Shown: piece after piece, positions 47,630-59,257 of the stretch
How the letters are laid out: each line of letters opens with the position of its first letter
How positions within the stretch are numbered: position 1 is the stretch's first letter
Source: an uncultured Prochlorococcus sp.
GTDB lineage: Bacteria; Cyanobacteriota; Cyanobacteriia; PCC-6307; Cyanobiaceae
NCBI GenBank assembly: GCA_902600475.1
Contig: CACKJM010000001.1
Span: 2,685-66,684, forward strand
DNA: 64,000 nucleotides
Reading direction: 5' to 3'
The notes under the pieces: generated by a model
Databases searched by the model: none
Told to the model about the DNA's origin: nothing
Seen by the model: the letters and a program-made list of their open reading frames with translations, nothing else
Translations under genes and position numbers: made by a program

Positions 47630-47643
<14 letters not shown>
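47562..47643 (+). tRNA. tRNA-Tyr (anticodon GUA)
   Basis: Acceptor GGGTCGG pairs with CCGGCCC, anticodon loop ACTGTAAAT gives GUA, and a class II variable arm (CTGGCTCTGCCTACG) precedes the T loop GGTTCAAATCC. 82 nt. Its last 14 bases are repeated at the right end of the element. Confidence 0.95.
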
Positions 47644-47725
<82 letters not shown>

Positions 47726-47820: not shown

Positions 47821-47865
47821 AAAGTCAGATATCTGAAGGTGTATCACACAAACGATGACACCGAA

Positions 47866-48831
47866 ATGGCAACAATCAGAAGAAGCGGAAGCGGCTGGCA
47901 GGTCCTTATCAGAAGGAAGAATTATGTAGGCCCGAGGTCCAGAACTTTTCTTTCCAGAGATCTGGCCCAATCCTGGGCAGATGCAGTTGAAGAGAGAACA
48001 AAAAAGGTTTTCTTGGATATCCCAATCACCTTGGGAGAGGCAATCAATGACTATATAAATGGTCCGCTGCTGCTGCACCGCAGTGCGGAAAATGAAAAAT
48101 ATCCTCTCAGGGTTACAGCGGAAAGCTGGCTTGGAGATATTCCACTAATTAATTTGCAGATAAAGCACTTTGCAGTCTGGAGAGATGAACGATTACTGAA
48201 GGTGAAACCAAATACAGTTATGCGGGAACTGAGAATTCTGCGTGTATTAATTGACTGGGTACGAGATGAAAGAGGAGTGGAAATAAAAGATAACCCCGCA
48301 AGGCACCTGAGAGTGAGAGGAACGGGAGATGCTAGAGCTCCATTTTTCACTGATCAAGATGAGAAAAAACTTTTATATGAATTATCTCAGATGTCCAACC
48401 CAAATCATCTGAGACTCGCAAAGCTTGCACTGGCAACTAGCTTCCGCCGCTCGGAACTTCTGAGCCTGACCTGGAGAAATATAGATCTCAAGAAAAGAAT
48501 AATCTATATGTATAGAAAGAATTGTGCCGCAACAGATTATTCTTCTGCGCCTAGACTTATTCCTCTTCCGTGTAAAGCCAAAAAGATTCTGGATGAATTA
48601 TCGGAAAGGCAAGGAAAAATTATTGATCTGACAACAGGTGCCGCCAGGCATGGATTTGATAAAGCCAGAAAAAGGGCTCGGCTTGAAACTCTCAGATTTC
48701 ATGATCTAAGGCATATTGCCATAAGCAGAATGTGGAGTTCAGGAATGAATGCTCTGGAGATAAGTGCATGCAGTGGACACAGAGATATAAAAATGTTGAT
48801 GAGATACAGTCACTATCAATTAAGTTTTTAA
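47866..48831 (+). CDS. Tyrosine recombinase / integrase
   Basis: 321 residues from ATG 47866, chosen because MATIRRSGSGWQV is the standard integrase start; a GTG nine codons earlier is possible. The N-terminal part holds an arm-binding and a core-binding region. The catalytic domain has the first Arg in ATSFRRSELLSL, the H-x-x-R box in FHDLRHIAISR, the second His in SGHRDIKML and the nucleophilic Tyr in RYSHYQ. Codons are visibly richer in G and C than in neighbours (for example in the GSGWQVL region), a sign of a different history. It is the likely enzyme for the flanking direct repeats. Confidence 0.94.
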   Translation: MATIRRSGSGWQVLIRRKNYVGPRSRTFLSRDLAQSWADAVEERTKKVFLDIPITLGEAINDYINGPLLLHRSAENEKYPLRVTAESWLGDIPLINLQIKHFAVWRDERLLKVKPNTVMRELRILRVLIDWVRDERGVEIKDNPARHLRVRGTGDARAPFFTDQDEKKLLYELSQMSNPNHLRLAKLALATSFRRSELLSLTWRNIDLKKRIIYMYRKNCAATDYSSAPRLIPLPCKAKKILDELSERQGKIIDLTTGAARHGFDKARKRARLETLRFHDLRHIAISRMWSSGMNALEISACSGHRDIKMLMRYSHYQLSF

Positions 48832-49086: not shown

Positions 49087-49542
49087 TTATCTTTCCGAAC
49101 CATTTACCCAGCCACCTGATCTACATTTTCCTGGATGATTTATGTCATAGCTATCGCACCAATAGCTATTTGCTGCAAATATAACTTTGCTATTAATTCT
49201 TCTAGCTCCACCATTAATAGGCATATAATGAATACCTTTTTTTACATTCAATTCTTCTGAGCAAAAGAAATCAGGACCGCACATCGCATAAGCAACTCCA
49301 TCTCTATTTAAATAAAGTATTGCTGCTGAGCCTGAATTTCTCCAATAAGGTATGCCTGGCAAACCAATATCTTCCGCTTTTTTATGATGACGGGCAACTC
49401 TAGTTTTATTAGATTCAAAAACATATTTCCATTCTACCTTTGGCAAACATACCAATAGAATCCAAAAAATAATTGGCCCATACAACACTCCAACTAAAGG
49501 CCAAAGTCCAATTTTTTTCCCTTTATTTTTATTGAAAGACAT
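49087..49542 (-). CDS. Hypothetical single-pass membrane protein (151 aa)
   Basis: Basic N-terminus (NKNKGKK), one membrane segment at about residues 13-32 (LWPLVGVLYGPIIFWILLV), then an outside-facing domain with several cysteines (MCGPDFFCSEEL, YWCDSY, GKCRSGGW) suited to disulfides. It is divergent from the secreted 355-aa gene with 152 bp between. No family recognised. Confidence 0.75.
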   Translation of the reverse strand: MSFNKNKGKKIGLWPLVGVLYGPIIFWILLVCLPKVEWKYVFESNKTRVARHHKKAEDIGLPGIPYWRNSGSAAILYLNRDGVAYAMCGPDFFCSEELNVKKGIHYMPINGGARRINSKVIFAANSYWCDSYDINHPGKCRSGGWVNGSER

Positions 49543-49694: not shown

Positions 49695-50762
49695 ATGATT
49701 TTTAAATTACTGATAGTTTTCGTTTTATCTTCTATTCCTCTTTCAATAAAAACAGAAACAAAAATTCCTATAAGACAAACTTGTGATGAAAAAAAATATA
49801 ATCAAAACTATAAATACTATGAAATGCAAGAAGCTTATGACTTCGGAAGAAAGATACAGACTTTATTGGCCAAAAAAGATCTAAAAGGTATTTACAAAAT
49901 AGTTTTAATTGATGAACTAAAAAATGGACCAAGAAAAGCATATTTAAGAAGTAAAAGTTTCGATCAAATATTCCCAAAAGAATGGGTATCAAAAATTACT
50001 ACAAGTAAGATTCCCTGCAATTCATTAGGATGGCGAGGATTCCAATTAGCAGATGGTTTAATTTGGTATGATTTAACTCCATCAGGTAAATGGTCTATTC
50101 AATCAATTAACGGGGTAAATCAAGAAAACTTTGAAGATAATAATATTGTGGGTTGGAGAACTAAAAAAGGACTAATATCTCCAACTTGCTTCCCAACCTT
50201 TGGTCATTTTGAAAATACTAAAATAAATTTGTATTCAGAGAAATTCAAAATTAAAGACAAAATTAAATTTAAAACTAGTCCTGGGAAATATATTGGCAAA
50301 ACAATCCCTATTAATTATCAAATTGAACATCCAACTCACATAAGAGGAAAAAATAATTATGTTTATTCATTGACAACAAATTTAAATGATTGCTTTAAAT
50401 GGTCTCTTCAAAATGGATTTGGAAAGAAGAAATCAGAAAAATATGAATTAGTTGCATTTAATAATTTTATTTATCTGAAAAATCGATATGAAAAAAATAA
50501 AAAATATGATCATTACAAACCACATTACAAAATACTTAAAAAAATAGATTTAAAAACATGCAATAAATTAGCTAAACAATTAACTAATAAATGTAAGGAA
50601 GCATATTTAATTAGTATTGGGTATCAATCAGGAGGAACTATTGGATGGTTAGGAGGCTATTATATTTTTGGGTTAATTGAAGAAAAAAATAATGAATATA
50701 TTGTTCCATTAAAATTTTTTAACCTGAAAAATTTAGCCTTGAATTTTTTAGAAAAAAATTAA
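49695..50762 (+). CDS. Hypothetical secreted protein (355 aa)
   Basis: The N-terminus is a hydrophobic signal (FKLLIVFVLSSIPLSIKTET), so export is likely. The mature chain is Lys/Asn/Tyr-rich with cysteines at about residues 29, 113, 176, 247, 301 and 310. There are no recognised motifs. It is convergent with the large helicase gene, 18 bp between stops. Composition is the same AT-rich type as the helicase gene, so both may have arrived together. Confidence 0.75.
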   Translation: MIFKLLIVFVLSSIPLSIKTETKIPIRQTCDEKKYNQNYKYYEMQEAYDFGRKIQTLLAKKDLKGIYKIVLIDELKNGPRKAYLRSKSFDQIFPKEWVSKITTSKIPCNSLGWRGFQLADGLIWYDLTPSGKWSIQSINGVNQENFEDNNIVGWRTKKGLISPTCFPTFGHFENTKINLYSEKFKIKDKIKFKTSPGKYIGKTIPINYQIEHPTHIRGKNNYVYSLTTNLNDCFKWSLQNGFGKKKSEKYELVAFNNFIYLKNRYEKNKKYDHYKPHYKILKKIDLKTCNKLAKQLTNKCKEAYLISIGYQSGGTIGWLGGYYIFGLIEEKNNEYIVPLKFFNLKNLALNFLEKN

Positions 50763-50780: not shown

Positions 50781-53700
50781 TTATAAATTATATTCATCTA
50801 GTGCTTGTTTAATTGCAATTAAAGCTATTTCAATTTCTTGCTCTTTATTTTTAAACCATTCTCGGGACCATATTCTATGAAATTTCCATCCTAATCTTTC
50901 GAGATGACTTTGTCTTATTCGGTCCCTATCTCTTGCAGTATCAGATGAATGATATGTAGCTCCATCAGCCTCAATTGCCAAAATATATTTACCTTTTTCT
51001 TTAGGATGTTGCACCGCAAAATCAAGCCTATATCCAGACACGCCATATTGTGGAACAAGTCCTATTCCTCTATCAATTAATGCATCATATATATCCTGTT
51101 CGAATGCATTCATTGGAACCGATTCTATTGATAAATCGCCTAGATCAGTTCCTCCACTTTTTACATATCTCAAATATTGAATAAAAGCCTTTTTACTTAC
51201 TTGATTTAATTGATTATCATCATATTTATATGGATCAATTGTAGAAATAATTTCAATTCTTTTTCTGGCTCTTGTAATTGCTACGTTTAATCTTCTAAGA
51301 CCAAAGAATTTTGGATTATCTAAATTAATAGGACCAAAATTCTGACGTAATTTATCAGCACTATTTGGTCCATATCCGGTTGATAGAAAAATAACATCTC
51401 TTTCATCTCCTTGAATAGTTTCCAAATGACGAATAATAAATTTCTCCTCTGGTCGATCATCAGGACTTATTGAAAAATCTTCATCTCCTGTTTGTTTTCG
51501 ATATTCTTTTTCTAATCTTCTTGCATGCTCAGCACCAAAAGCAATTACAGCTAAACTTTCATTTGGCTTTGTTTTTAAATGATTTATAGATAATTCAATA
51601 GTTTTTCTACATTCAGCCTCCGGAGACTTACCACTAATCTCGTTAAAATCGCCTTCAACTTGATGATATATAAATGGCGGATTTGATGAAACCGATGGAG
51701 CAGTAATTAATTTCTTTTGATAAAGTTCTGGATGACAATTAGAAAAAGATATTAATCTTTCATCTTCAGAACGATAATGCCATAAAAGTTTTTTAGTTCC
51801 ATAAACAGGAGGTAAAGCCTCCTTTACTGCATCAAGCAATGATTCAGTTTCGTCAACCGCACTAAATCCATCATCATCATCATCAACGCTATTTGCAACT
51901 GCATTTGCATCATTACCAGTAGCGAAGAATGCTGTTGAAGTAGGTGACAATTGCTTGGAATCTCCAGCAACTATAGTTTGTTTCCCCCTTAGAATTGAAG
52001 TAATGGCATCATATGGAACGATCTGACTAGCTTCATCAAAAATCACTACATCAAAAAAAGGTTCTGAAGAGGGCATTACTTTAGAAACAACTAAAGGACT
52101 CATAGCCCAGCAGGGCTTTAGCTTTTTTGCTACGTTTGATACTTTCTCAAATAACTCTCTTGCAGGTTTAAACTTCCTAGACCTAGCTAATTCTTGCCTT
52201 AAAATTTGAGTCTCGCTCGGATTATTATTTAATGAATCAAAAGCATTATTATCTAAAATTGTACTTATCCTGACGAAAGATTTTTCTATATGCTCTGAAT
52301 CATCCTTTCTGAATTCATCAACAATATCATCAAGATAATCTCTATTAAAAATTGAAAGTGAAGGACTTTCAATTCTCATTAATTCTTCTACTGAATCACA
52401 CCAACCAAGAGTAACTCTTTGAAAAATTCTGGAGTGTGAAAATCCATTTTGAAAATCTTTTAAAATATTTTCGAATAAATTATCTTGTGACAGGCCTAAG
52501 TCAAGCAATTCATTTAGAAGCTCGTTAATTTTTATAAGATTAGGAATTAATTCTCTATTTTTCTGAAGTATTTCATTGGTTTTTCTTATTTTCTCAATAC
52601 TTGAATTTTGGTTTAATTCCTTATCCAAGAAATTGTTCAACTGGGATAAATTTTCTTTTAATAAATTGATCACTTCAAAAATATTATTTGATGAATTTAT
52701 AATTTTGATTTTTTCTAATTCTAGATTTTTCTTAATATCCAGAATTCTTAAACCATTAAAAATATTTTCATAGTTTTTTTCTTTTTCTTTAAATATTATT
52801 TTTTTAAAAATCGATAGTAAATCTCGATATGATTTATCACGGAGAAAAAAGTACCATCTAAATATAAAATTTTTCCTAAAAATATTTCTTAAATAATTAA
52901 TTTTTTCTTTTTCAAGAATAAAATCTTTACTCAAATCTAAAATTTGATTAGACAAAACTTCTGAAACTGAATTTTCAATTTTATATATTTTCTCTAATGA
53001 ATCAGTATTTGATTCATTGGTTTCATTTTGGAATTGTCTCCATTTATAAATTTCTAAAATATTTTTTTTAATATTATCTATTGAAATATAAATTTTTTGA
53101 ATATGAGAAGGAGTCCTTATTTTTGATTCTAGGAATGATAATCTCATAGGAAAACTTTCATCTACAAAAATATCTAAAGATAATCTAGATAATTCTGCTA
53201 ATAAAGTTTCTAGCTTTTTTAAAGATTCAGGATTCAGATTATCAATTTCTTGATCAGTTATATCATGAGCAAAATCATTATTTTTTTTTGCTTTAATCGC
53301 AAGATTCAAAACATCAAGATAAGAAGAATTCCAAATATTTTTTTTGCTTTTCATTGCTTTACTTCTTGAAACAAGAATATCTCTCGATCTAGTTAAATTA
53401 TTATTCTCTTGAACTCTTCTTTTTCGATAGCTCAATATACTTTCAAGTTGTTGTCTAAATGATTCTGCCGGTCTTTTTATAAAGGTATCTATGGAATGCA
53501 AATCTAAAAAATAATCTTCCAGTCCAACCTTATTAATCCTTTTTTTTACAGCATCAATAGCTGCTCTTTTTTCTGCGACGAACAGAACACTTTTACCTTG
53601 TGCTATCAAGCTAGAAATTAAATTTGTAATTGTTTGACTTTTACCTGTCCCTGGGGGTCCTTCAATTACAAGATTTTGTCCTTTTAGAGCAGAATTTATA

Positions 53701-55109
53701 GCAAATTCTTGGCTTGAGTCTGCATCAAGAACAAGAAATTCATTCGCAGGAGGAATATAATCTGGTTCATTGATATCAACATCCTTAATATCATCTCTAA
53801 GCTTTCTCATAGAATTTCTATCTCCAGCTAATGCCGTAATTAATAAATTATTCATCAAAGCATCGCCAGCAGACAAAATATCTTTAACCATTGGAAATTT
53901 TAAATAACGCAAGTTTTTCATTGCATAACCCTCTTCTATTTCGAATTCAAGGTCTTTTGAAATTTCTTCTAGCAAATATCCTCTTACCATTTCTTCTCCT
54001 TCAAGCTGAGCCAATTTCAATAAATCATCACTAATTTCTTCACCCATTCTTCTATTCAAATGAAGTACTAAAGCAGGGTTAACTTCAGGCTCCATATTCT
54101 TTATTGAAAAAGTAATATTCTTTATTCTTTTTTCTTTCGGATTATCAATAGATAATTTGTAGTAAAGCAAGGGGGAATATGCATTACTAACCATTTCAGA
54201 TTTCCAGATTGCAAAGCCAGATATAAGACTAAAAACCTCTATTCCATACTGCTCATAATTATCAATAGCTTCTTTTACAGAACCTTTAATATTTCCCTCA
54301 GCTTCAAGATCCTCTAAATCGGAAACACTTACTGAATCTCCATTTAAAAGAGATTCAACTATTTCATCAGATGGGATATAGGAAGTAGTTTTTGTTTGTC
54401 TAAAACTTATCAAGTCATTTCTTCCAGACAAATCTACTAGTTCGTCTGCCCAAGATTTTATTTTTTCAAATACATTTTTTTCTTGATCTGTATAGTTTTT
54501 AGATAGAGAGTCATCATTATTTTCTTTTTGATCTTCATTTTGCGAAGTATTATTTTTTAATTTGTAAACTAAATAGTCTTTAATTGAAGAGAAGCCAGCA
54601 GGAATAATAATTTCCCTTGATTTAACTTTAGGTTTATCAAGATCATTCACATCATCTTCAATTTCACTATATTCACTTGGCTTAGTTTCTTTAAATTCTT
54701 CTGTAGGATTAATTTTTTCATCATTAGTTTTCTCTTTTATTGGTTTAGAAATATTTTTAAAATCTGAAATCGGTTTATCTTCTCTCTTAGTCCTTAAATT
54801 TGATTGAAAAGATGATCTAAATTTCATCTCATCTGCCTTTCTCGATTGAATACTATCTGATTCTTCTGATGATTTATCTAATAAACTCTTCTTACTTTTT
54901 TCCTCATAAGATAAGGTCTCTAAACATATATTTATTTTTTCTCTTATTATTTGAAGTTTTTTAATTGAATTAGCTTTTTTTCTAAAACTAATTTCCTCTT
55001 TTAAATAAATAAGCTGTCTTTTATTTTTCTGCCTTATGAGTGATTCACCAATACTAATTAGTTCACTATTTGAATTTCTAAAATAAGGTCTTATTTTATT
55101 CTCATCCAT
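50781..55109 (-). CDS. DUF4011-SF1 helicase-Vsr-like nuclease protein (Hhe-type candidate defence protein)
   Basis: 1442 residues. Region 1-210 is charged and partly coiled-coil. DUF4011 starts near residue 220 (WADELVDLSGRNDLISFR). Helicase motif I is GPPGTGKSQTITN near 485. A long coiled-coil insert runs about 560-970. The second ATPase half follows: VIFDEASQIVPY near 1024, VAGDSKQLSPT, WHYRSEDERLI, QGDERDVIFLS near 1235 and LNVAITRARKR near 1280. The C-terminus is a PD-(D/E)xK/Vsr-like domain (RLDFAV, AIEADGATYHSS, RDRIRQSHLERLGW) near 1360-1420. This domain order equals that of the anti-phage protein Hhe reported by Gao and colleagues. Phage defence is inferred, not shown. Confidence 0.9.
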   Translation of the reverse strand: MDENKIRPYFRNSNSELISIGESLIRQKNKRQLIYLKEEISFRKKANSIKKLQIIREKINICLETLSYEEKSKKSLLDKSSEESDSIQSRKADEMKFRSSFQSNLRTKREDKPISDFKNISKPIKEKTNDEKINPTEEFKETKPSEYSEIEDDVNDLDKPKVKSREIIIPAGFSSIKDYLVYKLKNNTSQNEDQKENNDDSLSKNYTDQEKNVFEKIKSWADELVDLSGRNDLISFRQTKTTSYIPSDEIVESLLNGDSVSVSDLEDLEAEGNIKGSVKEAIDNYEQYGIEVFSLISGFAIWKSEMVSNAYSPLLYYKLSIDNPKEKRIKNITFSIKNMEPEVNPALVLHLNRRMGEEISDDLLKLAQLEGEEMVRGYLLEEISKDLEFEIEEGYAMKNLRYLKFPMVKDILSAGDALMNNLLITALAGDRNSMRKLRDDIKDVDINEPDYIPPANEFLVLDADSSQEFAINSALKGQNLVIEGPPGTGKSQTITNLISSLIAQGKSVLFVAEKRAAIDAVKKRINKVGLEDYFLDLHSIDTFIKRPAESFRQQLESILSYRKRRVQENNNLTRSRDILVSRSKAMKSKKNIWNSSYLDVLNLAIKAKKNNDFAHDITDQEIDNLNPESLKKLETLLAELSRLSLDIFVDESFPMRLSFLESKIRTPSHIQKIYISIDNIKKNILEIYKWRQFQNETNESNTDSLEKIYKIENSVSEVLSNQILDLSKDFILEKEKINYLRNIFRKNFIFRWYFFLRDKSYRDLLSIFKKIIFKEKEKNYENIFNGLRILDIKKNLELEKIKIINSSNNIFEVINLLKENLSQLNNFLDKELNQNSSIEKIRKTNEILQKNRELIPNLIKINELLNELLDLGLSQDNLFENILKDFQNGFSHSRIFQRVTLGWCDSVEELMRIESPSLSIFNRDYLDDIVDEFRKDDSEHIEKSFVRISTILDNNAFDSLNNNPSETQILRQELARSRKFKPARELFEKVSNVAKKLKPCWAMSPLVVSKVMPSSEPFFDVVIFDEASQIVPYDAITSILRGKQTIVAGDSKQLSPTSTAFFATGNDANAVANSVDDDDDGFSAVDETESLLDAVKEALPPVYGTKKLLWHYRSEDERLISFSNCHPELYQKKLITAPSVSSNPPFIYHQVEGDFNEISGKSPEAECRKTIELSINHLKTKPNESLAVIAFGAEHARRLEKEYRKQTGDEDFSISPDDRPEEKFIIRHLETIQGDERDVIFLSTGYGPNSADKLRQNFGPINLDNPKFFGLRRLNVAITRARKRIEIISTIDPYKYDDNQLNQVSKKAFIQYLRYVKSGGTDLGDLSIESVPMNAFEQDIYDALIDRGIGLVPQYGVSGYRLDFAVQHPKEKGKYILAIEADGATYHSSDTARDRDRIRQSHLERLGWKFHRIWSREWFKNKEQEIEIALIAIKQALDEYNL

Positions 55110-55509
55110 TTATAGAAAACAAATTTTTTTGTTTTATTATTATTGAATCTACAATATTTATCAACTTCAGAGTACGAATTGTCAAAAACTTTTAAAGGAT
55201 AAAGTATTAGTCAAAACATACTAATACTCAACCTTTAGGGACCTACATACAGTACGTGCATTATGTGTTTACACACATACCCACGTATCAAATAAAAGTA
55301 GTTTAGTTGTTGTTGAGAGTGTTTTATTTCAGTACTTACAATGATGATGTACACACATCCAGTAAGTAGTCCCCACTCAATTTCTTGTCTTTTCCGCCTT
55401 CTTCCTGTGTATTATGAAGGGGTTTCATAATCGATTGCAATAACTGGGATCTCAGAGATCAGCATTTTGTCTTAAATTCATATATATTTAACAAAGATTG
55501 TCTTCAGTG
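55110..55509. other. Gene-free 400-bp stretch with inverted repeats
   Basis: No credible gene. It holds TATGTGT/ACACATA (55262-55279, 4-base loop), GATGT/ACATC near 55350, and a 13-bp palindrome GATCTCAGAGATC (55448-55460) that lies 49 bp before the start of the next gene and recurs upstream of its paralogue at 59320. Confidence 0.7.
55448..55460. promoter_or_regulatory. Palindrome upstream of the 63-aa gene
   Basis: GATCTC-A-GAGATC, followed by AGCATTTT. It lies exactly 49 bp before the ATG at 55510; at the paralogue, GATCT-GGT-AGATC (59258-59270), also followed by AGCATTTT, lies exactly 49 bp before ATG 59320. The palindrome survives although the centre changed. Operator or RNA hairpin. 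Confidence 0.6.
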
Positions 55510-55701
55510 ATGCCACTATCGTCATACAGGATGCATAGGATTTATCTCGCAGCGACCATGAATTATGGTCTGGGTTCTGATGATCCAGAGGAGTTAGCCT
55601 ACTACAACAAAATCAGAAAAGAGATGGATGATATGAAAAAAGAACCAGTTAAAAAAGGGATACCCCTTAATTGGGATACCCACAAAGGAATGGATAAATG
55701 A
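55510..55701 (+). CDS. Small paralogous protein, copy inside the element (63 aa)
   Basis: ATG 55510 chosen over an upstream TTG because the paralogue at 59320 begins at the same place. The core RMHRIYLAATMNYGL is identical in the two copies, then DDPEELAYY and PLNWD. It is basic and soluble. Function unknown. A 31-codon membrane-like ORF overlaps its stop. Confidence 0.8.
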   Translation: MPLSSYRMHRIYLAATMNYGLGSDDPEELAYYNKIRKEMDDMKKEPVKKGIPLNWDTHKGMDK

Positions 55702-55797: not shown

Positions 55798-56580
55798 CTA
55801 CTTAACTGCGAAAGTCACTCCCATAACCGCAGTGATGTCTTTCTTGATAGTTGAAGTGTCATAAGAACCCCAACTACTTACCTTCGTGGAATTCGGTACT
55901 GTTATCTGAAAAACACCGGTATTCACTCTCTTTAAACCACCAACTTCAGATCCTGCCTCAAGAGCGATAGCTTCAGCCCTAACTCTTGCATCCTTTGCTG
56001 CCTTAGCAAGCATATCAACTCGTTTATCAGCCAGCTTTGAATAGGTGAATTCAGGACGGCTTGGTTTCACCCTTACCCCTTTCCCAAGCAATTCTGTTAT
56101 CTGACTATGAGTCTTCTGGATGTTATAAACATCCCTACTTTCAATCTCAATATTCTGATAAGTAATCCATTCAGTTCTAATGATTTCATTGGTCTTTGGA
56201 TGCTTGGTTTTATATTCACTGATACTCGCAGGTCCAAGATAAACATCCTGCTTTACACTGTCCTCAATTCCATTGGCTTTAAGGAAATTCATTGTCTTTT
56301 CCATTGACTCTTTATGCTTGGTAAATGAGTCAATCTGGGTTTGACCTGAGGTCTTTACCTGGACTGACCATTTTGCAATATCACTCTCGAAACTTTCAGT
56401 ACTTGCACCTGTAACAGTGATAGTATTCTCAACGGTTCTGAACCCTCTTACAAGGACCGTAGAGGCACCTATAAATCCTCCGAGAGATAAGACAGCCATT
56501 GCGAAAACAAGTGGCGGAGTGCGGCGTATAACGCCCAGAGAATCGCCCGGCAGCGACCTTAGTCTCTTAATAATTTTCAT
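55798..56580 (-). CDS. SIMPL-domain protein (DUF541)
   Basis: 260 residues. A basic N-terminus and one membrane segment (about 23-45, PLVFAMAVLSLGGFIGASTVL) anchor a periplasmic SIMPL domain (TVENTITVTGASTESFESD, SGQTQIDSF, ITVPNSTKVSSWGSYDTSTIKKDITAVMGVTF). The GC content is higher than in the neighbouring helicase gene. SIMPL proteins are of mostly unknown function, often envelope-related. No obvious operon partner. Confidence 0.88.
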   Translation of the reverse strand: MKIIKRLRSLPGDSLGVIRRTPPLVFAMAVLSLGGFIGASTVLVRGFRTVENTITVTGASTESFESDIAKWSVQVKTSGQTQIDSFTKHKESMEKTMNFLKANGIEDSVKQDVYLGPASISEYKTKHPKTNEIIRTEWITYQNIEIESRDVYNIQKTHSQITELLGKGVRVKPSRPEFTYSKLADKRVDMLAKAAKDARVRAEAIALEAGSEVGGLKRVNTGVFQITVPNSTKVSSWGSYDTSTIKKDITAVMGVTFAVK

Positions 56581-56823: not shown

Positions 56824-57375
56824 CTAATCCCAGCCATAAGGAAAAAACTTTCTGCATCCACCTGAATCAACAAAGAACCCTTCTGATGCATCAATAATAG
56901 TTTTCATTTCTTTTGATAATTTCTGTCTTCCATATTGTCCCTTCTCTGTAAAAGGAATTGAGTAGTAATAATTTTGAGAAAGTTGCGGCATCAATGCCCT
57001 AAATTTTCCAGATTTTCTATCTTCTTTTGAAGTCGCTCTTGCTAGTTGATTGCCAACAAAATTCATAAAATGTCCTGTACCTATTTCTTTTGTATTTTTT
57101 GTTCTTTCCTGATAGGTTTTTTCTTCGTTTAACAATTCAGGTGAATATGATCTTGCATTGTAATACTGACCTCCATATCCATTCCAGATACCCACATAGA
57201 AACCTAATGATGGTTTATTTTTATAATTTAGAGTTCCTATCCCACCAGCGGAACCAGTATATTTCAAAGTTATAGTTACATCTGGTTCAACTTCACTTGT
57301 AAGAGTACAAATTTCTTTAGCTATTACTGGAGAAGTAAAACCTAACAAAAGTGGCATTAATATTAGGCGTTTCAT
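56824..57375 (-). CDS. Hypothetical secreted protein (183 aa)
   Basis: Signal peptide MKRLILMPLLLGFTSPVIA ends at Ala19. The mature part contains YTGSAGGIGTLNYKNKPSLGFYVGIWNGYGGQYYNA and ends GGCRKFFPYGWD. Two cysteines may form a disulfide. Its ATG overlaps the stop of the 105-aa gene (ATGA), so they are coupled. The MKRL start is shared with the next gene and with mini-ORFs at 58059 and 58627. Confidence 0.75.
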   Translation of the reverse strand: MKRLILMPLLLGFTSPVIAKEICTLTSEVEPDVTITLKYTGSAGGIGTLNYKNKPSLGFYVGIWNGYGGQYYNARSYSPELLNEEKTYQERTKNTKEIGTGHFMNFVGNQLARATSKEDRKSGKFRALMPQLSQNYYYSIPFTEKGQYGRQKLSKEMKTIIDASEGFFVDSGGCRKFFPYGWD

Positions 57376-57689
57376 TTATCCTTTTTTACTTCAGGGAAAC
57401 AATCTGGAAAGATATCCAGGACTTTCCCAATAGCATTCATTTGATCTTCTTGTATGTTTTTTTTATTTCCATGAGCACGTTCATGGAGGTTTAGAGCAAA
57501 TCCCAACATATCTATTTTCTGTTTCATAGTTATGTGATTTCGATCTACTGCATAGCAGACAGAAAGAACTTGACCAAGCAATATTTTATTAGCTTCAATA
57601 TCACTCATTTCAGATGAAACTTTTTCATTGGCATTAAGAGCATTAGGTAATGCCAAGGAAACCAGCAGTGGTAGCAGTAGGCGTTTCAA
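57372..57689 (-). CDS. Hypothetical secreted protein (105 aa)
   Basis: TTG start at 57689, two bases after the stop of the DUF3764 gene. Signal peptide MKRLLLPLLVSLALPNALNA. The mature chain is helical (SEMSDIEANKILLGQVLSVCYAVDRNH) with two cysteines. Function unknown. First three residues match several island genes. Confidence 0.75.
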   Translation of the reverse strand: MKRLLLPLLVSLALPNALNANEKVSSEMSDIEANKILLGQVLSVCYAVDRNHITMKQKIDMLGFALNLHERAHGNKKNIQEDQMNAIGKVLDIFPDCFPEVKKDK

Positions 57690-57691
57690 AA

Positions 57692-57976
57692 TTAATCAGA
57701 AATCCAGCGGTTTATTATTGTCCCTTCATAAATATGACCCGATGCTTCGACTATTGGTTTGGTTTCTGGATTAACAAAGATGTCATAACAAGTATTTACT
57801 GGTCCTTGAAACATAACGGTTGCTCTTTTGGGGTCTTCCAGTGATTTGCCAATATAAAAAGTTTTTACTCCCATCTCCTTAAACATGGCCTGTTGTTCAG
57901 GAGCATTCATATGAGCCTCATATTCCTCAAAAGTATTGCTTAATTTGAAATCTAAAACAGTTGTTTCAATTGACAT
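57692..57976 (-). CDS. DUF3764 family protein (94 aa)
   Basis: Opens MSIETTVLDFKLSNTFEEYEAHM and contains the GHIYEGTII ending typical of DUF3764. It is a paralogue of the gene at 61582 (about one third identical). Small ABM-like fold with no catalytic residues known. A terminator-like hairpin lies immediately upstream of the ATG and a 15-bp near-palindrome 31 bp upstream. Confidence 0.82.
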   Translation of the reverse strand: MSIETTVLDFKLSNTFEEYEAHMNAPEQQAMFKEMGVKTFYIGKSLEDPKRATVMFQGPVNTCYDIFVNPETKPIVEASGHIYEGTIINRWISD

Positions 57977-58000
57977 AAAAAAAGGAGCTAATTGCCCCTT
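57977..58000 (-). promoter_or_regulatory. Terminator-like hairpin directly before the DUF3764 start
   Basis: Read on the minus strand: AAGGGGC, 5-base loop, GCTCCTT, then seven T reaching the ATG. The one non-Watson-Crick position is G-U on this strand but A-C on the plus strand, so it favours a minus-strand RNA. The gene at 61860 has the same unit. Confidence 0.7.
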
Positions 58001-58007
58001 AATTGTA

Positions 58008-58022
58008 GATCGACTGTCAATC
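58008..58022. repeat. 15-bp near-palindrome, copy a
   Basis: GATCGACTGTCAATC: arms GATCGAC and GTCAATC pair at six of seven positions around a central T. It lies 31 bp upstream of the DUF3764 start and 5 bp from the mini-ORF stop. Confidence 0.7.
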
Positions 58023-58026
58023 GTAT

Positions 58027-58059
58027 TTAATATAGCGGTGCAATTAGTAAGCGTTTCAT
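58027..58059 (-). CDS. 33-nt mini-ORF (MKRLLIAPLY)
   Basis: ATG overlaps the TGA of the 134-aa gene at 58056 (ATGA). Ten codons then TAA. It is 48/50 identical in DNA (58010-58059) to the mini-ORF region at 58578-58627. Whether it is translated or is a relic of a signal-peptide gene start is unknown. Confidence 0.45.
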   Translation of the reverse strand: MKRLLIAPLY

Positions 58060-58460
58060 CTAGGAAGTATTCTATTTAATTCGGGATATTCAATTCTTAA
58101 TTCTTCTATAAATGCATCAACGGTCTTTGATATCTCGTCAGTAGTATTCAAAATAGAATTTTTATATTTTAGATATTCGGAAACTTGAAATAATTTCATA
58201 GTTGATTTTGTTAAAAGTAATGTTGCAAGAGGAGATTTATCTGCCAATTTAGTTGAAGGAAAATATTTTATAGTTTCAGGATAAGTTTTTTCCATATCCT
58301 CAATATAGTCTTCTATCTTTTCATTTAATTCATCATATTTTGATGATAAAAACTTTTTGGTATTTAAATATTCAAAACCTGCGAATAAAAAACCAATAGG
58401 AAAACTTAAAAATAATATTGAAAGAGAAAGCCTAAGAAGATTTTGGGAAAATTTTTCCAT
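58056..58460 (-). CDS. Hypothetical protein with signal anchor (134 aa)
   Basis: Start ATG 58460 (MEKFSQNLLRL) preferred over a TTG four codons upstream. One membrane segment at about 10-32 (SLSILFLSFPIGFLFAGFEYL), followed by a helical, charged domain with EKIEDYIEDMEKTYPE. It contains two YPE/YPEL segments (YPETIKYFPS and YPELNRILPR) that suggest an internal repeat. No family recognised. Confidence 0.65.
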   Translation of the reverse strand: MEKFSQNLLRLSLSILFLSFPIGFLFAGFEYLNTKKFLSSKYDELNEKIEDYIEDMEKTYPETIKYFPSTKLADKSPLATLLLTKSTMKLFQVSEYLKYKNSILNTTDEISKTVDAFIEELRIEYPELNRILPR

Positions 58461-58575
58461 AGAAATAATCAATTAAATTTATTTAAAACATATCAAGGTT
58501 AAAAGTAAGTAAAGCATGTAATATTTTTGCTTTCTTCTTCCGATCTACTGAAATATTTAATTTTTATAATTTCTA

Positions 58576-58590
58576 TATCGACTGTCAATC
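58576..58590. repeat. 15-bp near-palindrome, copy b
   Basis: TATCGACTGTCAATC, one base from copy a. It starts the 50-bp block 58578-58627 that is 48/50 identical to 58010-58059. Confidence 0.7.
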
Positions 58591-58594
58591 GTAT

Positions 58595-58627
58595 TTAATA
58601 TAGCGGTACAAGTAGTAAGCGTTTCAT
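58595..58627 (-). CDS. 33-nt mini-ORF (MKRLLLVPLY)
   Basis: ATG directly follows the TAA of the TM2 gene (TAAATG). Ten codons then TAA. Paralogue of 58027-58059. Confidence 0.45.
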   Translation of the reverse strand: MKRLLLVPLY

Positions 58628-58855
58628 TTAATCATCTGCATCTTCAAATTCTCTTAGCAAACGAAAAGTTTTAGAAATAAATGGGAAAATCCATACCAAC
58701 AAACCTACTACTGTTATCAAAGCAACAAGAAAACCCAAAATTGCTAAGAATCCACCAGTTACATCTCCTTCGTAAAATCGATCAAGTCCAATTGGAGCAC
58801 CAACTCCTAAAAGGAAGAGTCTTGTTAGAGTTTGTTTTTCTTTTTTTCTCAACAT
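58628..58855 (-). CDS. TM2-domain small membrane protein (75 aa)
   Basis: Two hydrophobic segments with LLGVGAPIGLDRFYEGDVTGG between, close to the TM2 pattern (glycines and an acidic DRFY turn). Basic start LRKKEKQTLTR. It lies 30-35 bp downstream of a near-palindrome (copy c). Function unknown. Confidence 0.7.
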   Translation of the reverse strand: MLRKKEKQTLTRLFLLGVGAPIGLDRFYEGDVTGGFLAILGFLVALITVVGLLVWIFPFISKTFRLLREFEDADD

Positions 58856-59057: not shown

Positions 59058-59153
<96 letters not shown>

Positions 59154-59257
59154 TGGCCAAAAGTATTGCTACGAGCAAAAGGTAAGTAGTAAAAAAGTAT
59201 AAATATTGTTTCTTTGATTCGACAGGGGATCCTTGCAGAATTGATCAATATAAATGG

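What the first reader, a model, noticed from the sequence alone, without database searches (positions are those of the whole stretch)
50781..55109. A complete Hhe-type (DUF4011-helicase-Vsr) protein as cargo of a tRNA-integrated Prochlorococcus-type element
One gene has, in order, DUF4011, a split SF1 helicase with a ~400-residue coiled-coil insert, and a Vsr/PD-(D/E)xK nuclease with its acidic and lysine-side residues visible (RLDFAV, EADGATYH). All helicase motifs I to VI appear intact. This is the domain order of the anti-phage Hhe protein. Prochlorococcus is known for few classical defence systems, so a mobile solo defence gene would be important. It stands alone: its neighbours on both sides have no enzymatic motif.
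Basis: partly seen in the sequence, partly recalled or inferred. Interest (0 to 1): 0.85.

Follow-up and report, generated by a model that had tools for sequence, protein, structure and literature searches.

The report
Hhe-like defence gene on mobile element
A DNA element that jumps between Prochlorococcus cells, the ocean's commonest photosynthetic bacteria, carries one large helicase-nuclease gene of an anti-virus type, in a cargo slot where other strains carry quite different anti-virus systems, so it is very probably a transferable virus-defence gene.

Summary
In detail: one intact 1,442-aa ORF (50781-55109, minus) with a split SF1B helicase (all motifs invariant in 20 relatives), a mostly helical insert of about 400 aa, and a C-terminal Vsr-type nuclease (predicted fold matches E. 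coli Vsr, Z 10.9). It lies in an 11.4-kb element bounded by perfect 96-bp tRNA-Thr repeats, with a tyrosine recombinase; complete genomes show the empty site. "Complete Hhe" is not supported. The protein scores far below the curated Hhe and ProA cut-offs, its DUF4011 region is sub-threshold, it is 470 aa shorter than a real Hhe, and a tree puts it outside the Hhe clade. It is a divergent cousin (closest model PDC-S37) with its own fast-evolving N-terminal module, which also heads two Mokosh-like helicase proteins. The strongest functional evidence is context. The same recombinase/tRNA-Thr element, in other species of the genus, carries Mza, DISARM, type I/II/IIG/IV restriction or OLD-type genes in the same slot (25 of 30 visible slots). 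The element moved whole into one relative (99.4-99.8% identical inside, 90-93% outside), and the gene was swapped onto another backbone in cultured strain MIT9302. Most likely: a mobile single-gene anti-phage helicase-nuclease. Activity is untested.

The parts
47630..47725 (+). left attachment repeat (96 bp): last nucleotides of tRNA-Tyr and spacer plus the tRNA-Thr(GGT) gene
   Evidence: perfect direct repeat with 59058-59153; tRNA calls; empty-site comparison
59058..59153 (+). right attachment repeat (96 bp) with a second complete tRNA-Thr(GGT)
   Evidence: a full 96-bp distal copy also in G172, G294, G213, G267, G042, G026, G295, with 95 bp in G024, degraded in G067 and G011, and a 51-bp remnant in MIT9302
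47839..48831 (+). tyrosine recombinase / integrase of the element (330 aa)
   Evidence: PF00589 E 6e-19; matches of at least 200 aa in 31 of 266 genus genomes
49087..49542 (-). orfA, small protein with an apparent N-terminal membrane segment; recurs next to the recombinase with other cargoes
   Evidence: no family hit; found in L128, L131, L141 with other cargo
49695..50762 (+). orfB, 355 aa, apparent signal peptide, convergent to the helicase gene; moved together with it into MIT9302
   Evidence: no family hit; distribution 16 of 266; co-moved with the helicase gene
50781..55109 (-). helicase-nuclease gene (1,442 aa) of the Hhe/ProA/PDC-S37 superfamily
54885..55109 (-). N-terminal module, residues 1-75, about 33% identical to orthologues whose catalytic domains are about 80% identical; shared with Mokosh-like helicase proteins of G131 and G162
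54495..54884 (-). variable, low-complexity linker, residues 76-205
53790..54494 (-). diverged DUF4011 region, residues 206-440
   Evidence: sub-threshold PF13195; aligned to DUF4011 of relatives in A1
53430..53789 (-). RecA-like domain 1, first half with motif I (GPPGTGKS, 484-491), residues 441-560
52230..53429 (-). mostly helical insert, residues 561-960
51135..52229 (-). helicase motifs II-VI, residues 961-1325
50784..51134 (-). Vsr/MTES_1575 nuclease, residues 1326-1442 (D1363, E1380, D1382, H1387)
55498..55701 (+). short hli-like ORF bordering the cargo slot (conserved in most elements)
   Evidence: identification as high-light-inducible-like is by sequence appearance only, no family scan
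55798..56580 (-). SIMPL (DUF541) gene, conserved distal marker of the element
   Evidence: PF04402 E 4e-23
56824..58855 (-). distal small ORFs of the element, including DUF3764 (57692-57976)

Best explanation
It is a single-gene anti-phage helicase-nuclease, a divergent member of the Hhe/ProA/PDC-S37 superfamily, carried as one of many interchangeable defence cargoes by a tRNA-Thr-integrating, tycheposon-type element of Prochlorococcus. Proposed mechanism: the Upf1/Dna2-like SF1B motor loads on incoming or replicating phage DNA, moves along it using ATP, and the C-terminal Vsr-type nuclease nicks or cuts the DNA; the fast-evolving N-terminal module and helical insert probably set when or on what the protein acts. 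Shown here: the domains and conserved catalytic residues, the element and its ends, empty sites, horizontal transfer, and defence cargo in the same slot of other genomes. Inferred: anti-phage activity, DNA as substrate, direction of translocation, and the role of the N-terminal module.
For: Superfamily: PADLOC PDC-S37 E 8.6e-211 and Hhe E 9e-119; NCBIfam anti-phage ProA 686 bits, Hhe 535 bits. Catalysis: motifs invariant in 20 relatives; helicase model matches IGHMBP2/Upf1/Dna2, Z about 19; nuclease model matches I-Bth0305I Z 12.6, DUF559-type 3hrl Z 11.6, E. coli Vsr Z 10.9 with 2.4 A over 102 residues, 3hrl also by sequence, E 1.8e-4. Purifying selection. Slot: of 31 genomes with a recombinase match of at least 200 aa, 30 show cargo and 25 of those carry a recognised defence gene: Mza, DISARM DrmA/B, type I, II, IIG and IV restriction, PDC-M33 with a cytosine methylase, OLD-type, or this superfamily. 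Control: 44 window ORFs outside the element have no PADLOC hit at E <= 1e-30 (best 2e-29). Mobility: element 99.4-99.8% identical to AG-919-J11 (distal part 98.2%) with flanks at 93.3% and 89.7%; in MIT9302 the gene plus orfB is 98.3-98.8% identical while recombinase, orfA and flanks are 86-92%. Patchy presence, 12 of 266.
Against: No activity data for this subfamily. It fails the curated Hhe and ProA cut-offs. Upf1-like helicases often act on RNA, so the substrate is uncertain. Cyanopodovirus P-RSP2 was isolated on MIT9302 (PMC9860041), which carries a 98.8% identical gene, so protection is not universal. Five of 30 slots hold cargo not recognised as defence. Some relatives lie outside any recognisable element (L024, L028, L034, L095). 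The control counts genes, not comparable islands.
Confidence: 0.8

Rival explanations
1. Inter-element competition: the protein mainly protects its host from other mobile elements (plasmids, satellites, rival elements) rather than lytic phage.
For: It sits on a mobile element whose tRNA-Thr site is contested by different cargoes; relatives occur on hundreds of plasmids and in phage-like contigs.
Against: Anti-phage and anti-element roles are not exclusive; restriction, Mza and DISARM cargoes of the same slot are known as anti-phage systems.
Confidence: 0.1
2. RNA-directed abortive defence: the Upf1-like motor and nuclease act on host or phage RNA and stop growth of the infected cell.
For: Closest solved helicases include the RNA helicases Upf1, IGHMBP2 and Sen1; RAP-domain RNA-associated proteins share the nuclease fold.
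Against: Vsr and I-Bth0305I, the best catalytic matches, are DNA endonucleases, and the acidic and His residues are intact. Dna2, a DNA helicase-nuclease, matches equally well.
Confidence: 0.1
3. A DNA-repair or element-maintenance enzyme with no defence role.
For: Dna2-like motor and Vsr-like nuclease folds also serve repair.
Against: Absent from 254 of 266 genus genomes; exchangeable with restriction systems in the same slot; the same recombinase/tRNA-Thr elements occur without it.
Confidence: 0.05
4. orfB (or orfA) is a necessary partner, so the unit is a two-gene system.
For: orfB is convergent with the gene, co-moved with it into MIT9302 and also lies beside the second helicase family.
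Against: Seven genomes have orfB without either helicase at that place, and orthologues L023, L024, L025 and L028 lack it next to the helicase gene. orfA and orfB look membrane-bound or secreted.
Confidence: 0.12

Closest known systems
Hhe (NCBIfam NF042953, PADLOC PDLC02194; 'Gao Hhe' in PMC11291487)
   Same: Order DUF4011 region - split SF1 helicase with long insert - MTES_1575/Vsr nuclease; all motifs and nuclease residues shared
   Different: 535 bits against a cut-off of 2000; DUF4011 sub-threshold; 1,442 against 1,911 aa; extra N-terminal module; outside the Hhe clade
PDC-S37 (PADLOC candidate, PDLC05009) and anti-phage ProA (NCBIfam NF058533)
   Same: Best models: 701 bits (S37) and 686 bits (ProA)
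   Different: Below the ProA cut-off of 1500. PDC-S37 is a broad model that also matches the second, Hhe-clade Prochlorococcus protein at 893 bits
Second Prochlorococcus helicase family (G067, G257, G152, G033 and others, about 1,670 aa)
   Same: Same superfamily; in G067 it occupies the same element and slot
   Different: Groups with Hhe (support 0.99), clear DUF4011, no N-terminal module, about 25% overall identity
Mokosh (MkoA/MkoC-like helicase proteins of G131 and G162)
   Same: Same N-terminal module of about 70 aa, then an SF1 helicase and a probable nuclease domain
   Different: Different helicase family and an apparently PLD-type instead of a Vsr-type nuclease
Tycheposons (Prochlorococcus tRNA-integrating elements; Hackl et al., not held, known here through PMC10872708 and PMC11389934)
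   Same: tRNA-bounded, tyrosine recombinase, variable cargo, empty sites
   Different: Described there as mainly nutrient-uptake and nitrate cargo; here the cargo is mostly defence. Hallmark genes and recombinase clade not tested

Membership tests
Hhe | Curated NCBIfam cut-off (2000 bits) | tested here: not met
   534.8 bits
Hhe | N-terminal DUF4011 (PF13195) at gathering score | tested here: not met
   13.8 bits, cut-off 22.2; annotated Klebsiella Hhe scores 129 bits
Hhe | Split SF1 helicase with intact motifs | tested here: met
Hhe | C-terminal MTES_1575/Vsr nuclease with active-site residues | tested here: met
Hhe | Falls in the same clade as annotated Hhe | tested here: not met
   FastTree on 602 columns, 20 sequences: Hhe groups with the second Prochlorococcus family (0.99); the window clade is separate. 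Unrooted, SH-like support
Hhe | Anti-phage activity | not testable with these tools
   needs experiment
ProA (NF058533) | Curated cut-off (1500 bits) | tested here: not met
   685.9 bits
PDC-S37 (PADLOC candidate) | Best-scoring PADLOC model with a strong match | tested here: met
   701 bits, E 8.6e-211; model is broad and the candidate itself is unverified
Tycheposon | tRNA-integrated, direct repeats, tyrosine recombinase next to the tRNA, empty site in relatives | tested here: met
Tycheposon | Recombinase belongs to the tycheposon clade; other hallmark genes | not tested
   reference paper not held; no hallmark set available
Mokosh | Helicase matching Mko models strongly plus PLD nuclease | tested here: not met
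   window protein has only weak MkoA/MkoC scores (60 and 47 bits) and a Vsr-type nuclease; only its N-terminal module is shared with Mokosh-like proteins

The most novel reading that the evidence does not exclude
Residues 1-75 are a swappable recognition module that Prochlorococcus uses to aim unrelated helicase-nuclease defence proteins (the Hhe-like one and Mokosh-like ones) at the same class of phage or DNA signal, and the tRNA-Thr element is a dedicated defence-exchange platform whose unclassified cargoes (L128, L133, L135, L142/L146) are new defence systems.
Probability: 0.3. Interest if true: 0.8.

Novelty: new variant of a known kind. Interest (0 to 1): 0.62.

Why it matters
Prochlorococcus is reported to carry 0-1 restriction systems per genome, with many genomes lacking them (PMC8262939), and its tRNA elements are described mainly as nutrient-gene carriers (PMC10872708). 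Here one tRNA-Thr element family, present in about a tenth of sampled species of the genus, mostly carries defence systems that replace one another. That would make phage defence in the ocean's most abundant phototroph mobile and modular, and would tell experimenters where to look for it. The gene is present, 98.8% identical, in the cultured strain MIT9302, so the idea can be tested.

Tried and rejected
Filing it as Hhe: rejected on score, missing DUF4011 threshold, length and tree. orfB as an obligatory partner: not supported, because it occurs without the helicase and orthologues occur without it. Relatives in viral contigs with the single-sequence query: none; with the profile, about 27 phage-like contigs encode relatives, most much longer, so the gene type also travels in phage-like DNA, but no Prochlorococcus orthologue was seen there. 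orfB and the recombinase in viral contigs: none and one distant hit. In the phage collection: one real relative. The G197 match of the N-terminal module was discarded: its ORF looks RecC-like, probably chance. The Hackl tycheposon paper is not held, and no paper was found for PDC-S37 or ProA. Weak PADLOC hits (E 1e-29 and above) were not counted as defence because core genes reach that level; genes of weaker score in the slot were counted only where another gene of the same element is strong.
Full report
What is there. The ORF at 50781-55109 (-) is intact, 1,442 aa. From the N terminus it has: a 75-residue module, a variable linker (76-205), a diverged DUF4011 region (206-440), the first RecA-like helicase half with motif I, a mostly helical insert of about 400 residues, motifs II-VI, and a Vsr/MTES_1575 nuclease that ends 15 residues before the stop.

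Enzymatic integrity. In an alignment of 20 relatives, including annotated Hhe of Klebsiella and Vibrio plasmids, every helicase motif and the nuclease residues D1363, E1380, D1382, H1387, R1393 and D1396 are invariant. AlphaFold models, made from window and the search for related loci sequences only, give an SF1B helicase closest to IGHMBP2, Upf1 and Dna2 (Z about 19) and a nuclease closest to I-Bth0305I (Z 12.6), a DUF559-type protein (3hrl, Z 11.6) and E. coli Vsr (Z 10.9, 2.4 A, 102 residues). 3hrl is also found by sequence (E 1.8e-4). dN/dS is 0.04-0.10 in the catalytic domains but reaches 0.3-1.0 in the N-terminal module and linker between distant orthologues (NG86 on partly saturated dS, so only the contrast should be trusted).

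Which family. PADLOC ranks PDC-S37 (701 bits) over Hhe (396), and NCBIfam ranks ProA (686, cut-off 1500) over Hhe (535, cut-off 2000). A tree of the conserved core puts the window protein with Prochlorococcus orthologues, then Dehalococcoidia, Cylindrospermopsis and Haloferax sequences, away from Hhe; the second Prochlorococcus family (about 1,670 aa) is the one that joins Hhe with support 0.99. It is a divergent cousin of Hhe, not a complete Hhe. What it works like is a separate matter: a helicase fused to a Vsr-type nuclease, as in Hhe, is the best working model.

The element. Perfect 96-bp repeats lie at 47630-47725 and 59058-59153, each with a complete tRNA-Thr(GGT), with a tyrosine recombinase just inside the left one. 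In complete genomes of the genus without the element, the sequence left of 47727 joins directly to sequence homologous to 59232 onward; 78 nt right of the right repeat have no counterpart. Several other elements of the family show the same distal repeat; MIT9302 keeps a 51-bp remnant and a recombinase with a stop codon.

Distribution and movement. The host genome is a draft of 47 contigs, 84% complete; all close relatives are Prochlorococcus. Orthologues of at least 48% identity occur in 12 of 266 genus genomes and the second family in 8; the tRNA site itself matched in 265 of 266, although some of those matches are short. Against AG-919-J11 the element is 99.4-99.8% identical over most of its length (distal part 98.2%) while its flanks are 93.3% and 89.7%, so the whole element moved recently. 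Against MIT9302 the gene and orfB are 98.3-98.8% identical but the recombinase is 86%, orfA 92% and the left flank 91%, so the gene-orfB block was exchanged between element backbones. In AG-436-C05 and AG-436-O11 the gene lies beside the same tRNA-Thr in the opposite orientation without the recombinase; other orthologues lie elsewhere.

The slot. Thirty-one genus genomes have a recombinase match of at least 200 aa, and in 30 the cargo is visible. Between recombinase and the hli-SIMPL marker, 25 carry at least one recognised defence gene: Mza with Vsr and a cytosine methylase; PDC-M33 with a methylase; DISARM DrmA/DrmB; type I, II, IIG and IV restriction; an OLD-type gene; or this superfamily. 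Some assignments are by blastp to a scanned neighbour rather than by direct scan. As a control, 44 window ORFs outside the element give no PADLOC hit at E <= 1e-30. This context is the strongest argument for a defence role.

N-terminal module. Residues 1-75 are about 33% identical to orthologues whose catalytic parts are about 80% identical. The same module (A5) heads two proteins of 1,138 and 1,155 aa, in G131 and G162, that match Mokosh models (E 3e-58, 4e-60) and end in a stretch that looks PLD-like by eye. In the single-sequence search those matches had E 9.6e-6 and 0.002 per genome; the much lower profile E-values include the two sequences in the model and are not independent. A shared sensor or adaptor is an inference.

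Mechanism. Shown: domains, conserved active sites, mobility, defence context. Inferred: that the motor runs on phage DNA and the nuclease cuts it, and that the N-terminal module and insert regulate or aim it. P-RSP2 was isolated on MIT9302 (PMC9860041), so protection, if it exists, is not universal.

Limits. The genome set is one genome per species, often incomplete. The window's element was compared with related elements, not with other tRNA islands. Whether defence cargo on Prochlorococcus tRNA elements has already been reported could not be checked, because the primary tycheposon paper is not held.

Noticed in passing
L105, L106, L098, L099, L104, L128-L147 (same tRNA-Thr/recombinase slot): Interchangeable defence cargoes: Mza, DISARM, type I/II/IIG/IV restriction, PDC-M33, OLD-type; a Vsr gene recurs at the hli-proximal edge of many of them.
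   Followed up: yes
L142:7262-18818 and L146:6832-18447 (G177, G140): Unclassified cargo block (973, 399, 452, 363, 392 aa and others) in the defence slot of two species; candidate new system.
   Followed up: partly
L128:4018-16217 and L133:2072-14872 (G206, G215): Unclassified large proteins (1108/1208 aa) followed by TPR-rich proteins (1053/1274 aa) in the same slot; candidate new system.
   Followed up: partly
L135:1354-8995 (G267): Unclassified multi-gene cargo (576, 435, 357, 500, 289 aa) in the same slot.
   Followed up: no
L218:2238-5654 (-) and L219:2163-5630 (-): Mokosh-like helicase proteins, apparently with a PLD-like C terminus, that share the 70-aa N-terminal module of the window protein.
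   Followed up: yes
L155:6275-9814 (+) (G147): A third, MkoA-like helicase of 1,179 aa convergent with an orfB fragment, next to the same tRNA-Thr.
   Followed up: partly
window 49087-49542 (-), 49695-50762 (+): orfA and orfB, apparently membrane-bound and secreted, recur with several different cargoes and in other loci; function unknown.
   Followed up: partly
L148:13925-15274 (-), L150:7627-8976 (-), L153:11955-13304 (-): A different 449-aa protein lies directly beside tRNA-Thr in three genomes with orfA/orfB but without this recombinase; possibly another integrase (no PADLOC hit; not scanned otherwise).
   Followed up: no
window 59154-59231: 78 nt right of the right repeat with no counterpart in empty sites; possibly a scar of an earlier insertion.
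   Followed up: no
L026/L027 (AG-919-J11): orfB appears disrupted around residue 283 although the rest of the element is nearly identical to the window's.
   Followed up: no
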